DNA from: a virus
Reading direction: 5' to 3' (one strand)
IMG/VR virus record: IMGVR_UViG_3300038701_002631
Coordinates: 1 to 21,888 of that record
Length of the DNA: 21,888 bases
The stretch's first letter is position 1; every line of letters starts with the position of its first letter. Below the pieces are notes generated by a model. The model did no database searches. It worked only from the letters and a program-made list of their open reading frames with translations, and was not told where the DNA came from. Positions 15,253-21,443 of this stretch are shown one piece after another. Both the position numbers and the translations under genes were made by a program.

Positions 15253-15706
15253 TGCATGGGAAAGGTACGATCGCGAGCTCCCCCTCTCCTATGAGGACGT
15301 CGCCGAGATCACCGGCCTGGCGGTCTCGACGCTCCAGAGCTGGAAGAGCGCGGGGAGGATCGAAGCACTCACGACCACTTCCTCGGCGGTGGTGCGCTTT
15401 GCGCCCGCTGAGGTCCGCCGTATCCTCGGAGCGCAGACAGCGGCCGAGGGAAAGGAGCTGACGCATGGACATGCGCAACATCAAGGCCCTGGGTCCGAAC
15501 AAGTACCGGATCCGGTTCAAGTACCGAGATCCCCTGACGGGAGAGCAGGTGGTCTACCAGAAGACACTCAGCGGCGTGACGCTCGTCGCCGCGCGCGCTC
15601 ACCGCGACGAGGCCCGCGCCGCCGCGTTGCGGAAGGCATGGGAACCGGCGCCTCGGCGCGCGAGCTCGTTCGTGGACTCATATCTCGCGACCCGGGCGAG
15701 GCGTGA
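15239..15706 (+). CDS. Excisionase/MerR-type HTH protein overlapping integrase
   Basis: GTG 15239 (or GTG 15245) starts a protein whose first 70 residues are a MerR/Xis-like helix-turn-helix: LSYEDVAEITGLAVSTLQSW, KSAGRIEAL, VVRFAPAEVRRILG. Excisionases direct integrase toward excision and usually sit next to int, as here. The frame stays open to 15706, 242 bases into int in another frame. From about residue 76 on it reads a low-complexity Arg/Pro tail that looks like the shadow of int. The tail may be translated, or the real stop may be an assembly or sequence difference. Confidence 0.7.
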   Translation: MAVSSAWERYDRELPLSYEDVAEITGLAVSTLQSWKSAGRIEALTTTSSAVVRFAPAEVRRILGAQTAAEGKELTHGHAQHQGPGSEQVPDPVQVPRSPDGRAGGLPEDTQRRDARRRARSPRRGPRRRVAEGMGTGASARELVRGLISRDPGEA

Positions 15707-16691
15707 CCCCGGACGACGCGGGCGCCCTATCACCGCGTCCACTCTCGAGCGCGACGCCTTCGCGCTCGACCTCCACATCATCCCTGAGATCGGCGACTGG
15801 ATCGTCTCGCGCATCACGCTCGAGGACCTCGACGAGCTCGTCGACCGGTGGTGCGTGAAGGAGCGCGCGAACGGGAAGCTCTACGCGGCCAGTTCGATCA
15901 ACGTGTGGATCAAGGTCCTCAAGCTCTTCCTCAAGCACGCGGCGCGCGCCGTGGGCGTCGAGTCGCCAGCCGAGGGCCTCGAGGTCCTGCCGCTGACGGG
16001 CGAGAGGAAGGGGAGGGCGCTCTCACCCGCGGAGGTGGGCGCGTTGCTCGAGTGGGTCGAAGAGTCGGCGCCTCAGCACCTCGCCATGGTCTGGCTCGCG
16101 GTGACCACGGGGGCGCGCTTCTCCGAGCTCGCCGCCGTCCACTGGGACCAGGTCGACGAAGAGGCGGGCGTAATCGAGTACACCCACAGCGTCTACAAGG
16201 GACGGCGCCGCCGCGGCTCGAAGACGGGGGCGGAGGTGCGCGCGCCGCTCGCCCCGAACGTGGTCGAGGCGCTCGCGCGACATCGCGAGCGCCTCGTTCA
16301 GACGCGGCATCCCCTGGCTGGCGGTGACATCGTCTTCCCGGCGCGCGTGCTCAGCACGTCGCGCGCGGAGTATGCAGGGTACCAGACCCGTACGGGACTG
16401 GCGAAGACGCTCGCGCGCGCGGCGCGCGAGTTGAAGCAGGACCCAATCACTCCCCACGACCTGCGACGTACCTGCAACACCCTCATGCTGGGCGTGGCGC
16501 GCGAGCACGTCGTTCAGGCGATCACCGGCCACTCCACTTCGGAGATGACCCACCATTACACCTTCGTCGACGACGACGCGAAGGCGACCGCGGTGGGGAG
16601 GATGTTGACCCTCATTGAAGGGGGTAAGGGTCAACGAAGGGTAAACGACTCAGTGGACGCGGAAGTGGAGGGCCGCATAGAATCAGCGTGA
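15465..16691 (+). CDS. int: Tyrosine recombinase (phage integrase)
   Basis: The integrase catalyses strand exchange between attP and the host tRNA site. The 408-residue protein starts at ATG 15465 with AAAGGAG upstream; an in-frame TGA at 15459 rules out an earlier start. The N-terminal arm-binding region (residues 1-60) contains NKYRIRFKYRDPLTGEQVVY. A SAM-like core-binding domain follows (about 66-165: SFVDSYLATR, TLEDLDELVDRW). The catalytic domain shows R218 in TTGARFSELAAVHW, H331 and R334 in HDLRRT, H356 in GHSTSE and Y365 in HHYTF. All catalytic residues are present. The 3' end of the gene carries left-arm attP repeats, and the tRNA-like core lies 15 bases downstream. Confidence 0.95.
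   Translation: MDMRNIKALGPNKYRIRFKYRDPLTGEQVVYQKTLSGVTLVAARAHRDEARAAALRKAWEPAPRRASSFVDSYLATRARRDPGRRGRPITASTLERDAFALDLHIIPEIGDWIVSRITLEDLDELVDRWCVKERANGKLYAASSINVWIKVLKLFLKHAARAVGVESPAEGLEVLPLTGERKGRALSPAEVGALLEWVEESAPQHLAMVWLAVTTGARFSELAAVHWDQVDEEAGVIEYTHSVYKGRRRRGSKTGAEVRAPLAPNVVEALARHRERLVQTRHPLAGGDIVFPARVLSTSRAEYAGYQTRTGLAKTLARAARELKQDPITPHDLRRTCNTLMLGVAREHVVQAITGHSTSEMTHHYTFVDDDAKATAVGRMLTLIEGGKGQRRVNDSVDAEVEGRIESA
16604..16648. repeat. attP left-arm repeats (integrase arm-type sites)
   Basis: Inside the end of int, GGGTCAACGA (16628-16637) and GGGTAAACGA (16639-16648) are direct repeats 11 bp apart. An inverted GTTGACCC stands at 16604-16611. The same pair of repeats, also 11 bp apart, recurs on the other side of the core, as expected for arm-type integrase sites. 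Binding is inferred. Confidence 0.7.
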
Positions 16692-16705
16692 GAGTAGCTC
16701 GGGCG

Positions 16706-16752
16706 CTTCCCTCACACGGAAGAAGTCCCTGGTTCAATCCCAGGTACGCCCA
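16706..16752 (+). other. attP core: 3' half of tRNA-Val(CAC)
   Basis: The sequence folds as the 3' half of a tRNA. Anticodon stem CTTCC/GGAAG (16706-16710, 16718-16722) closes loop CTCACAC with anticodon CAC (Val); then come AAGTC, T-arm CCTGG-TTCAATC-CCAGG (16728-16744), acceptor strand TACGCCC and discriminator A (16752). No CCA is encoded. A matching 5' GGGCGTA acceptor and a D-arm are not found upstream, so this is not a complete gene. It restores the host tRNA gene on integration. Location just after int supports an att site. Confidence 0.88.
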
Positions 16753-16800
16753 TTAAAAAACAACAACTTACAGCCCCTCGGGTTGCCGTTGTCTGCCTAC

Positions 16801-16844
16801 GTTGACCCCTCGTTGCCCTCCTTAGGGTAAACGAGGGGTCAACG
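16801..16844. repeat. attP right-arm repeats in a 14-bp perfect inverted repeat
   Basis: GTTGACCCCTCGTT (16801-16814) and AACGAGGGGTCAAC (16830-16843) are perfect inverted arms, with CCCT/AGGG pairing inside. They contain GGGTAAACGA (16825-16834) and GGGTCAACG (16836-16844), again 11 bp apart, plus inverted copies at 16801 and 16810. They mirror the left-arm sites across the tRNA core. As RNA the dyad could also act as a structured end for the int transcript, but no T-run follows. Confidence 0.7.
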
Positions 16845-17006
16845 CGTTCTTGGGGCGATCGCTGTCTTGGGCCCAGAGGGGAACGAGTAGCTCGAATATC
16901 TCCCATCGCAGTGCATTGAGGGAGATGAGTCGGCGGGGTGGGTTTCGCGAAAATGACAGGGGTTGGTTTGTAAAAATGCAGGGTGAACAAATGTATACGC
17001 GTTTCG

Positions 17007-17034
17007 TTGATCGTTATGAGTGAAAGGACAGAAT
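17007..17034 (+). promoter_or_regulatory. Weak candidate promoter for the accessory module
   Basis: TTGATC (17007-17012) and CAGAAT (17029-17034) are separated by 16 bp, each four of six to consensus. It is the best of several weak candidates upstream of the gene at 17155. A start near 17041 would give a leader of about 115 bases containing the hairpin at 17081-17127. Confidence 0.3.
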
Positions 17035-17080
17035 TTGTCATTTTGTGGAAGCAAATCTGTGCCGTGCGTACTATTTGTAC

Positions 17081-17127
17081 TGTGAGATCCACTCGCGCCA
17101 CATGGATGTCGTTGAAGTGGACTCACA
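17081..17127 (+). promoter_or_regulatory. Leader hairpin/dyad before the 71-aa gene
   Basis: TGTGAGATCCACT (17081-17093) pairs with AGTGGACTCACA (17116-17127), a 12-bp stem with one bulge. It ends 15-20 bases before the GCGGAGGA ribosome site. It may be an operator or a translational control hairpin. Confidence 0.5.
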
Positions 17128-17154
17128 CCGTTTCACCACAAGCGGAGGACGAAC

Positions 17155-17370
17155 ATGAAAGACACTCAGCTCACGGAAAACTTGAACGATTTTGAGAGGA
17201 TGGTCATTGAGCGCGAGCAGCGCTTGGCGGAGTCCAGTCAGGACTGGCGTCGGTTTGAGCAGCGTTGGGGTAAATACGCGCAGCGTGACTCAGCTCCACT
17301 GCCGCAGTTTACTCCTGACCAGCAGACTGACCCTCCCCTGCGCGTCGTGATCAGCGGCGACATCATCTGA
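17155..17370 (+). CDS. Unknown 71-aa protein of the accessory module
   Basis: ATG 17155 with GCGGAGGAC upstream. The sequence MKDTQLTENLNDFERMVIER is followed by EQRLAESSQDWRRFEQRWGK (helical, charged) and a Pro-rich, likely flexible end, FTPDQQTDPPLRVVISGDII. The composition and codon choice (more A/T third bases) differ from the phage core and match the protease gene 25 bases downstream, so the two probably form one transcription unit. No family was recognised. Confidence 0.65.
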   Translation: MKDTQLTENLNDFERMVIEREQRLAESSQDWRRFEQRWGKYAQRDSAPLPQFTPDQQTDPPLRVVISGDII

Positions 17371-17375
17371 AACTC

Positions 17376-17394
17376 AAAAAAAAGGGGGGCCCCC
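17376..17394 (+). repeat. A8-G6-C5 homopolymer tract before the protease start
   Basis: Eight A (17376-17383), six G (17384-17389) and five C (17390-17394) run directly up to the ATG at 17396. The G-run is part of the ribosome binding site, and GGGGG/CCCCC is self-complementary. Length changes by slippage would alter the spacing to the start codon. Confidence 0.8.
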
Positions 17395-17395
17395 A

Positions 17396-18343
17396 ATGCC
17401 CAACTGGAGAGAAATTTCAGCGCGGTTTGGGGGCTTCCCCACGCCTGAACTCGTCATCCCGTCCGAGTACATCGAGAAACTTACGTACATCACGGGACGA
17501 CATACCATTATCTACTACTCGGATTTCCTTGAGCCGACACCAGGGGTGCCAGGCGAAGCGTACTCCATCACAGACAGTGACATGAATGCGTTCATGGCAA
17601 CTGTCCACAAGTTGGATTCTACCAAGGGACTCGACCTGATCTTGCACACACCTGGGGGTCGCGTATCTGCAACAGAGGCCATCGTCAGATACCTCAAGTG
17701 CAAGTTCGACCACATCCGGGTGATCGTCCCCCACCTGGCTATGAGTGCTGGGACGATGATTGCTTTGTCTGCAAACAAGGTGTTGCTCGCCAAACACGCC
17801 AGTTTGGGAGCAATTGATCCGCAGATTGCCAACCGGTCTGCCCATGCGTTCGTGGAAGAATTCGAACTGGCAGTTGAAGCAATCAGGAACAACGAGCCGT
17901 CAGCGTTGCTCTATCGTGACATGGTCGCGAGGCACCCCGTTGCGTTCATTGAAGACTGTAGGCGCGCCATCAAGTGGTCGGAGGAACTCGTAACGGAGTG
18001 GCTGACCGATCGCATGTTCTCTCATCTGTCGCGCAGTCAAGCGAAACGGAGGGCCAAGAAGATTGTCGACGCTCTCGGGGATCACGACAGAACTCGCGCA
18101 CACGATCGGCACGTAAACTTCGAGAGCGCCCGCAAGATGGGGATCGAGATGGAGCTCATCGAAAACATTGGTGCGGATCCTCAGCTTCTCTTGGATGCCC
18201 AGTTGGACGATTTCCAGGATGGGGTTTTGTCAATCCATCATGCGATGATGAACCTCTTGGCCAGAACTTCTGTGGTCAAAATCGTTCAAAACGACCTTGG
18301 TGTACGGGTGGTGCAACAGGCCCTCCCTCCCCAACGCTTTTGA
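17396..18343 (+). CDS. SDH-type Clp-fold serine protease
   Basis: The 315-residue protein resembles the serine dehydrogenase proteinase (SDH) group of the ClpP/crotonase fold. LDLILHTPGG (about 79-88) is the glycine-rich oxyanion strand. IVPHLAMSAGTMIALSA places the nucleophile at S117 in the MSAGT context. LAKHASLGAIDPQI (about 131-144) is the loop that normally follows in SppA/SDH proteases. There is no signal peptide or TM helix, so it should be cytoplasmic. The C-terminal half (RDMVARHPVAFIEDCRRAIK; SHLSRSQAKRRAKKIVDALG) is helical. The gene has lower GC than the phage core and sits beside attP, as cargo genes often do. Substrate unknown; a role in defence or superinfection exclusion is speculation. 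Confidence 0.85.
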   Translation: MPNWREISARFGGFPTPELVIPSEYIEKLTYITGRHTIIYYSDFLEPTPGVPGEAYSITDSDMNAFMATVHKLDSTKGLDLILHTPGGRVSATEAIVRYLKCKFDHIRVIVPHLAMSAGTMIALSANKVLLAKHASLGAIDPQIANRSAHAFVEEFELAVEAIRNNEPSALLYRDMVARHPVAFIEDCRRAIKWSEELVTEWLTDRMFSHLSRSQAKRRAKKIVDALGDHDRTRAHDRHVNFESARKMGIEMELIENIGADPQLLLDAQLDDFQDGVLSIHHAMMNLLARTSVVKIVQNDLGVRVVQQALPPQRF

Positions 18344-19894: not shown

Positions 19895-20123
19895 CGGCGC
19901 GCCTCACGGTCTGGCGTGTGATGGCGGCGTCGGCGCCCGCCTGGACTCCTGCGAGCGCGACCAGGCCGCCCACGGCGATGGCGCCCTCGACGCTCCCGTG
20001 TAGGGTGAGGCCGATCACCCCGCCCATGCCTATGAGCGCGAGCAGGAACTTGCGAGAGAGCAGGTTGAGAAGGCGGTCGCCAGCGCGCGCGCGCCAGCTC
20101 CGCTCGGGTGTGTGCTCGGTCAT
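19887..20123 (-). CDS. Holin-like small membrane protein
   Basis: ATG 20123 overlaps the endolysin stop (ATGA). The 78-residue product has a basic N-terminus (MTEHTPERSWRARAGDRLLN) and two closely spaced hydrophobic segments, FLLALIGMGGVIGLTL and AIAVGGLVALAGVQAGADAA, joined by a short turn, with a charged C-terminus. Size, topology and direct coupling to the endolysin suit a holin that permeabilises the inner membrane. The family was not identified. Confidence 0.65.
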   Translation of the reverse strand: MTEHTPERSWRARAGDRLLNLLSRKFLLALIGMGGVIGLTLHGSVEGAIAVGGLVALAGVQAGADAAITRQTVRRADE

Positions 20124-21082
20124 AGGTCGAGTCCTCCCACGAAGGTCACCCACCATGGCGACCGGTTGTAGACACGCCATCGGCGCGGCCTGCGCGCCTC
20201 GGGCAAGGTGTTGATGAGGTCGTTGACGTCGAGGCGCCCGCCGCGCGCGGCCTGCCTCATGCGCTTGCGACACCCGCCACCGCCGTACTGGACGGCGATG
20301 TCGAAGATGACGGCGAGCGTGGCGGCGTCCTTGACCCTGAGCTCGTTGGCGAGTTCGAGTTGGGGCCGCATGTAGACCTCGATGGCCACCCGCTCGAGGG
20401 TGCGCGCGGCGAGTTCGGTGCGCGCGAGCGCGCGCAGGCGATCGACCCATGGGTCTTCCCACAGGTCGGCGCCGTCGACGGGTCTCACCCGCGCCGAGCG
20501 CTTGCCAGGACCCTCACCGGACACCACGCGGCGTGACCTGCCGCCACGGTTCGTGAGCTCGACGATGTGCGAGGCACGCTCCCCGAGGTGTTCCTCGACG
20601 GTGGCGCGGTCCTGCACCCACATCAGCTTGAGCCACAACCCGAGGTTGCCGCCGTCCTGAGTGACCTGAATGCGCCCGAGCGAGAGGCCGACGTGCGTAC
20701 CGCCGTCGGGCTGGTGCTTGCTCGCCCAGTGGATGCGTTCGTCGGTGTCGAATCGCCCCTCGTACTCACCGTCACGGTTGGCGGCGTCGTCGCGCCCGCC
20801 CGACTCGTGCTGAATGGTCGGGCGCGCGAGTTCGAGGACGCCCAGGTCGGTCAGAACGCGTTGCTCGGCCCACTGCACGCCGAGCACGCGGCGCGTCGCT
20901 GGCCCCGCCTTGCCATCCGGGTCGAGCCCGTGGCCATCCTGCCAGGCGGCGAGCGCGGCGCACGTGAGCGGACCCCACTCGCCGTCCACCTTCGTGAGCA
21001 CTTCGGCCTGAAGGCGTCGCACGGTCTCGTTGGGGTAGCGCTGGTGCTGGTTGTACCTGATGGCCTTTTCCCACCTGCTCAT
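20120..21082 (-). CDS. Endolysin: peptidoglycan-binding domain plus lysozyme-like domain
   Basis: ATG 21082 follows GGAGGGTGAG. The 320-residue protein begins with a PG_binding_1-type domain (about 18-68: VRRLQAEVLTKVDGEWGPLT, CAALAAWQDGHGLDPDGKAG). A lysozyme-superfamily catalytic domain follows: IQHESGG places a likely catalytic Glu at 93, and GLSLGRIQVTQDGGNLG (about 132-148) corresponds to the conserved GxxQ strand of lytic enzymes. YGGGGCRKRM lies further on. There is no signal peptide, so it needs a holin for release. Cleavage specificity cannot be read from sequence. It is flanked on both sides by small membrane proteins and coupled to the holin-like gene. Confidence 0.78.
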   Translation of the reverse strand: MSRWEKAIRYNQHQRYPNETVRRLQAEVLTKVDGEWGPLTCAALAAWQDGHGLDPDGKAGPATRRVLGVQWAEQRVLTDLGVLELARPTIQHESGGRDDAANRDGEYEGRFDTDERIHWASKHQPDGGTHVGLSLGRIQVTQDGGNLGLWLKLMWVQDRATVEEHLGERASHIVELTNRGGRSRRVVSGEGPGKRSARVRPVDGADLWEDPWVDRLRALARTELAARTLERVAIEVYMRPQLELANELRVKDAATLAVIFDIAVQYGGGGCRKRMRQAARGGRLDVNDLINTLPEARRPRRWRVYNRSPWWVTFVGGLDL

Positions 21083-21083
21083 C

Positions 21084-21443
21084 TCACCCTCCTCGACTGA
21101 GGGGCCACAGCACGGCCCCGAGTACGGCGCCCACTGCGCCGAGAATCCACCACACCCACCAACCCGAGACACGCCGCCAGTCGAGCGCGCCGAGGACGAC
21201 TCCGCCGACGCCGAGCAGCCCGAGCACGTAGTCTGTCCAGGTCGGCCACCACTCAGGCATGACCGGCCCCCACCAGTGCCCAGCGAGCGCGAACCACGCG
21301 GGCGGGATGACCCACCAGCGCCGAGCCCACCTCCGCATGGTCTCGCTCACGGTGTCGCCCGGCGCATCGTTGCGTGAGGCGACCCACGTGTAGACCGAGA
21401 CGACGGCGACGGTGGCGACGATGAGTAGCTCGGTGGTCGTCAT
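21084..21443 (-). CDS. Trp-rich multi-pass membrane protein, 119 aa
   Basis: ATG 21443 overlaps the upstream stop (ATGA). Hydrophobic segments are LLIVATVAVVSVYTWVA, WWVIPPAWFALAGHWWGPV, YVLGLLGVGGVVLGAL and WWVWWILGAVGAVLGAVL, suggesting four helices with a striking number of Trp. It could be a second holin/antiholin. Its stop lies two bases before the endolysin ATG. Confidence 0.65.
   Translation of the reverse strand: MTTTELLIVATVAVVSVYTWVASRNDAPGDTVSETMRRWARRWWVIPPAWFALAGHWWGPVMPEWWPTWTDYVLGLLGVGGVVLGALDWRRVSGWWVWWILGAVGAVLGAVLWPLSRGG

What the first reader, a model, noticed from the sequence alone, without database searches (positions are those of the whole stretch)
16845..18343. Low-GC accessory module with SDH-type Clp-fold protease beside attP
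Just after the right arm of attP, base composition drops and a two-gene plus-strand unit appears: a 71-residue helical protein with its own leader hairpin and a 315-residue cytoplasmic SDH-type serine protease (S117 in MSAGT). Composition, position and separate regulation mark it as cargo. A small protein paired with a protease could be an undescribed lysogen-expressed system such as superinfection exclusion, host-protein turnover or a regulated toxin.
Basis: partly seen in the sequence, partly recalled or inferred. Interest (0 to 1): 0.7.

Follow-up and report, generated by a model that had tools for sequence, protein, structure and literature searches.

The report
Mobile two-gene protease module in phages
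Next to its attachment site this phage carries a gene for a protein-cutting enzyme and a gene for a tiny partner protein; relatives of the pair travel together through phages, bacteria and at least one archaeon, and most likely form an undescribed exclusion (self-defence) system made by dormant phages.

Summary
A low-GC (about 53% against 69%) plus-strand pair, a 71-aa ORF and a 315-aa SDH-type ClpP-fold protease with Ser117 in MSAGT, lies inside a phage between integrase/attP (3' part of a tRNA-Val) and the lysis genes. The 'leader hairpin' is not significant.

The stated refuter, that the pair never co-occurs elsewhere, fails. Among 120 testable non-redundant loci with relatives of the protease, 105 have a small ORF just upstream and 12 have one just downstream. 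About 97 of these partners resemble another locus's partner in sequence; third-codon-position changes show five partner groups are coding.

The pair is a stand-alone, patchy cassette (86 of 5,426 E. coli genomes; 2 of 81 Paracoccus). In E. coli it moves between unrelated prophages with its own promoter-like site and terminator. It sits in moron slots; a distant relative occupies the rexAB slot behind cI.

No Pfam or PADLOC model covers the partner, and I found no paper on the pair. Best reading: a lysogen-expressed exclusion or toxin-antitoxin-like module, with the protease gated by the fast-evolving small protein. Function is untested, and the window's own partner is assigned by position and layout only.

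The parts
15465..16691 (+). tyrosine integrase (context)
   Evidence: Pfam Phage_integrase 9.2e-19, PHROG_1 1.4e-45
16695..16752 (+). attP core: 3' part of a tRNA-Val(CAC) gene (anticodon arm, T arm, acceptor 3' strand)
   Evidence: read from sequence; ARAGORN finds no whole tRNA
16800..16844 (.). 15-nt perfect inverted repeat holding an AGGGTAAACGA arm-type repeat (integrase arm site and/or terminator)
   Evidence: (z -6.5)
17144..17148 (+). GGAGG ribosome-binding site of the small gene
   Evidence: sequence
17155..17370 (+). small partner protein, 71 aa, C-terminal strand-like LRVVISGDII
   Evidence: ORF with Shine-Dalgarno site (2% by chance); same position as partner genes at relatives; no sequence homologue found
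17396..18343 (+). SDH-type ClpP-fold serine protease, 315 aa, nucleophile S117, oxyanion GG 87-88
   Evidence: (pLDDT 93.7)
20120..21172 (-). endolysin (context: phage DNA right of the pair)

Best explanation
The two genes are one module: a cytoplasmic ClpP-fold (SDH-type) serine protease and a fast-evolving 50-90 aa partner. It travels as a promoter-to-terminator cassette in the moron slots of temperate phages and, less often, on chromosomes. Shown by computation: near-obligate pairing, order swap, cassette exchange, moron position. Inferred: it is made in the lysogen, and the partner, with a short N-terminal helix and a mostly disordered tail holding a strand plus an S/T cluster, binds the protease as an inhibitory pseudosubstrate or sensor. 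Infection by another phage would disturb this complex, and the freed protease would cleave a host or phage protein and abort the infection, so the module acts as an exclusion or toxin-antitoxin-like system.
For: Partner upstream at 105 and downstream at 12 of 120 testable non-redundant loci; permissive control for other long ORFs 39% against 86%. Downstream partners homologous to upstream ones (HMM down to 1.7e-9). Coding: 732/625/1586 changes at codon positions 1/2/3. Partner evolves faster (protease 62% identical, partner 27%), as antitoxins and sensors often do. No constant third gene. Integrase adjacent at 12 of 55 virus/phage/plasmid loci (PHROG); Q-lysis and lysis-terminase slots in E. 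coli. Cassette edges 8385-9787 of L172 shared with the differing prophage L175, with own promoter-like site and terminator. A distant relative plus 56-aa ORF follows cI where other prophages with the same flanks hold rexAB or a DUF1828 pair; that slot is known for lysogeny-expressed accessory loci (PMC7067206). Patchy: 86/5426 E. coli, 2/81 Paracoccus. One E. coli copy has a frameshifted protease with the partner intact.
Against: No expression, toxicity or phage-challenge data. The read-through fusion model shows no confident docking: partner tail pLDDT below 50. P0001 has no detectable sequence homologue. The partner in the rex slot is not detectably similar to the others (E 0.06). No PADLOC model hits. 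E. coli copies in late-region slots could be expressed in lytic growth instead. Three loci (L046, L162, L168) have no recognisable partner. About 20 partners rest on position alone.
Confidence: 0.5

Rival explanations
1. Counter-defence or host takeover: the protease is made in lytic growth and destroys a host defence or regulatory protein; the partner is its specificity adaptor.
For: Late-region slots Q-lysis in E. coli and Klebsiella-type prophages; fast-evolving partner fits a target-recognising adaptor; S/T-rich tail disordered in model.
Against: Cassette carries its own promoter-like site and terminator; also on chromosomes beside housekeeping genes; distant relative in the rex slot.
Confidence: 0.2
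2. Plain addiction (toxin-antitoxin) module that stabilises the prophage or plasmid, without a defence role.
For: Two-gene coupling, order swap as in some TA families, rapid partner evolution, protease frameshift with intact partner in EcN_Sk.
Against: Integrated prophages need little post-segregational killing; rex-slot position points to exclusion. Toxicity untested.
Confidence: 0.15
3. The small protein is the substrate: the protease processes it to release an active peptide or signal, as in pro-protein/protease pairs.
For: Conserved short strand + S/T motif in the partner's C-terminal half, 31 of 117 against 2.6 in shuffles; tail disordered.
Against: No secretion signal or membrane segment evident by eye; very low conservation apart from the motif.
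Confidence: 0.1
4. Ordinary unlinked cargo: a housekeeping-like SDH protease picked up by phage, the small ORFs being chance neighbours typical of phage genomes.
For: 39% of other long ORFs also have some short ORF in front by the permissive rule; window's own 71-aa ORF has no homologue.
Against: 86% against 39%; codon-position bias; homologous partner on the other side where order is swapped.
Confidence: 0.05

Closest known systems
SDH_protease, Pfam PF01972 / NCBIfam NF047768 Clp_like_SDH
   Same: ClpP/crotonase fold, MSAGT nucleophile, G(P)IDPQ motif; PF01972 well above cut-off (87.5 against 31.3 bits)
   Different: Below the NF047768 equivalog cut-off (100.6 against 250 bits); conserved MPNW start, extra helices, near-obligate small partner
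Lambda rexAB and other prophage exclusion pairs (CarolAnn 43/44, Sbash 30/31)
   Same: Two genes in prophage accessory slots; a distant relative occupies the same slot behind cI (PMC6426606)
   Different: No RexA/RexB homology found; protease plus soluble small protein rather than a pair with a membrane protein
Type II toxin-antitoxin modules
   Same: Small, fast-evolving, often overlapping gene beside a larger enzyme gene; order can swap; mobile
   Different: No known antitoxin family; toxicity and neutralisation untested; a protease rather than the usual toxin classes
ClpP and SppA/NfeD (1510-N) proteases
   Same: Fold (TM by target 0.5-0.63 to ClpP), Ser nucleophile and GG oxyanion aligned to 1510-N
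   Different: The ClpP His position (IHQP) appears to read IDPQ here (by eye); no ATPase partner gene; no membrane segment seen

Membership tests
PF01972 SDH-type ClpP-fold proteases | profile match above curated cut-off | tested here: met
   87.5 bits against 31.3
PF01972 SDH-type ClpP-fold proteases | conserved Ser nucleophile and GG oxyanion region | tested here: met
   S117, G87, G88 invariant in 108 sequences; aligned to 1510-N nucleophile region
NF047768 Clp_like_SDH equivalog | score above equivalog cut-off | tested here: not met
   100.6 against 250 bits
Prophage exclusion systems (rexAB-like) | sits in lysogen-expressed accessory slot | tested here: inconclusive
   rex slot occupied by a distant relative; window copy is att-adjacent
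Prophage exclusion systems (rexAB-like) | reduces infection by other phages | not testable with these tools
   needs plating assays
Type II toxin-antitoxin | two adjacent genes kept together | tested here: met
   117 of 120 testable loci
Type II toxin-antitoxin | one product toxic, the other neutralises it | not testable with these tools
   needs expression assays
Known defence systems (PADLOC 2.0.0) | match to a defence model | tested here: not met
   none for P0001 or P0002

The most novel reading that the evidence does not exclude
A previously undescribed, widespread immune module in which a ClpP-fold protease is held inactive in trans by a hypervariable pseudosubstrate protein that acts as the infection sensor.
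Probability: 0.3. Interest if true: 0.9.

Novelty: new variant of a known kind. Interest (0 to 1): 0.72.

Why it matters
The PDB search found no solved structure close to this protease over its whole length, and I found no paper on its function. A near-obligate small partner, two gene orders, and placement in exclusion slots turn an orphan protease family into a testable two-component system. E. coli prophage copies, one with a natural broken protease, and an allelic rexAB alternative allow direct tests in laboratory strains. If it is an exclusion module, it adds regulated cytoplasmic proteolysis with a hypervariable gate to prophage defence.

Tried and rejected
Protease-only and partner-only pattern searches in viral and genome contigs found nothing; an alignment query was needed. 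The integrase and the att core gave no related phage, so an empty att site could not be shown. A partner HMM did not detect P0001 (E 1.4). The read-through fusion model gave no confident interface. The right-hand DNA as host flank was rejected because endolysin follows. The leader hairpin was rejected. Head-maturation protease (weak PHROG hits) was rejected because PHROG 11747 is far stronger and no capsid gene is adjacent in the window. The multiubiquitin-E2-ThiF-DUF6527 operons with a distant SDH protease were considered as a shared Ub-like tagging mechanism, but no E1/E2 genes were found with the pair. Literature searches found no description of the pair; the library is open-access only.

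Full report
What is there. The window is a whole IMG/VR virus record. Terminase, DnaC-like and O-like replication genes, excisionase, integrase and endolysin mark it as a temperate tailed phage. Directly after integrase lies the 3' part of a tRNA-Val(CAC) flanked by AGGGTAAACGA repeats, which is read as attP. From 16.75 to 18.25 kb GC drops to about 0.53. The drop covers a 71-aa ORF (P0001) and a 315-aa protease gene (P0002). Phage lysis genes follow, so the pair is phage cargo, at the prophage end opposite integrase once integrated.

The protease. P0002 matches Pfam SDH_protease (1e-24) and PHROG 11747 of unknown function (4.6e-64). AlphaFold2 with 108 aligned sequences gives pLDDT 93.7, pTM 0.92. 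The best Foldseek hits in the PDB are all ClpP, at E from 2.5e-4 and TM about 0.5-0.6 by target; in BFVD they are 'serine dehydrogenase proteinase' models of giant viruses. S117, G87, G88, D62, H84, D141, H236, E256, Q274, H281, H282 and K295 are invariant. The catalytic base is not established; the ClpP His position appears to be Asp (by eye).

The pair is real elsewhere. Alignment-based scans gave 80 viral and 80 genomic loci across many phyla and one methanogen. After removing near-duplicates, 126 loci remain (window, phage and plasmid records included): 1 outgroup (L009), 5 cut at the contig edge, 120 testable. Of these, 105 have a partner ORF upstream (median 67 aa, often overlapping the protease start). 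Of 15 without one, 12 have a small ORF directly downstream, and several of those match an HMM built only from upstream partners (L094 1.7e-9, L113 2.4e-8, L122 2e-5). L046, L162 and L168 lack a clear partner. Single-linkage phmmer joins 87 upstream loci; with the downstream ones about 97 partners are supported by sequence, the rest by position only. The permissive positional rule also finds a short ORF before 39% of other long ORFs, so some positional calls may be wrong. Five groups of partners show coding constraint. Partner and protease similarities correlate (Mantel 0.31, permutation maximum 0.12), and the partner changes much faster.

The window's own partner. P0001 is not detectably similar to other partners. 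Its membership rests on position, a Shine-Dalgarno site, size, and a C-terminal strand (LRVVISGD) resembling those of loci with the nearest proteases, such as L100 (YRVVLTGST) and L096 (VFIRIESTT). This is a weak point and is counted as such.

Mobility and place. No third gene is constant. Integrase is the adjacent gene at 12 of 55 virus, phage or plasmid loci. In E. coli, 86 of 5,426 genomes carry relatives, in the copies read between Q and lysis or between lysis and terminase. Two prophages that differ around it share a 1.4-kb block that runs from a promoter-like TTGTCA-N17-TATAGT to an intrinsic terminator past the protease. A distant relative with a 56-aa ORF sits behind cI where other E. 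coli prophages hold rexAB or, behind an identical cI, a DUF1828 pair. That slot is a known site of lysogeny-expressed accessory loci (PMC7067206). Two of 81 Paracoccus genomes carry the protease.

Mechanism. Shown: pairing, order swap, cassette behaviour, moron position. Inferred: lysogenic expression, gating of the protease by the partner, activation by infection, abortive outcome. The read-through fusion model (L060) shows two short helices and a disordered tail without confident docking, so the pseudosubstrate step is a hypothesis resting on the enriched strand-plus-S/T motif (31 of 117 against 2.6 in shuffles). That pattern was chosen after looking at the sequences.

Verdict. An apparently undescribed, widespread two-gene protease module. 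Exclusion or TA-like function is likely but unproven.

Noticed in passing
L009:2601-5900; L177:186-3321: Distant SDH proteases at the end of multiubiquitin-E2-ThiF operons (with DUF6527 in L009) on Methylocystis and Microbacterium plasmids.
   Followed up: partly
L179:2236-3542: UTI89 prophage holds a hypothetical + DUF1828 pair in the rex slot behind an identical cI; possibly another exclusion pair.
   Followed up: no
L174:8424-9334: E. coli EcN_Sk copy has a one-base deletion in a G run that frameshifts the protease near codon 50 while the partner stays intact.
   Followed up: partly
17182-17195 and 18276-18289: 14-nt perfect inverted repeat (TTGAACGATTTTGA) between the start of the small gene and the end of the protease gene.
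   Followed up: no
BFVD hits: Giant viruses (Hyperionvirus, Klosneuvirus, Marseillevirus and others) encode SDH-type proteinases of similar predicted fold.
   Followed up: no
L170:5105-6157; L171:10119-11171; L175:7846-8898: A DNA methyltransferase gene lies close to the pair in several E. coli prophages.
   Followed up: no
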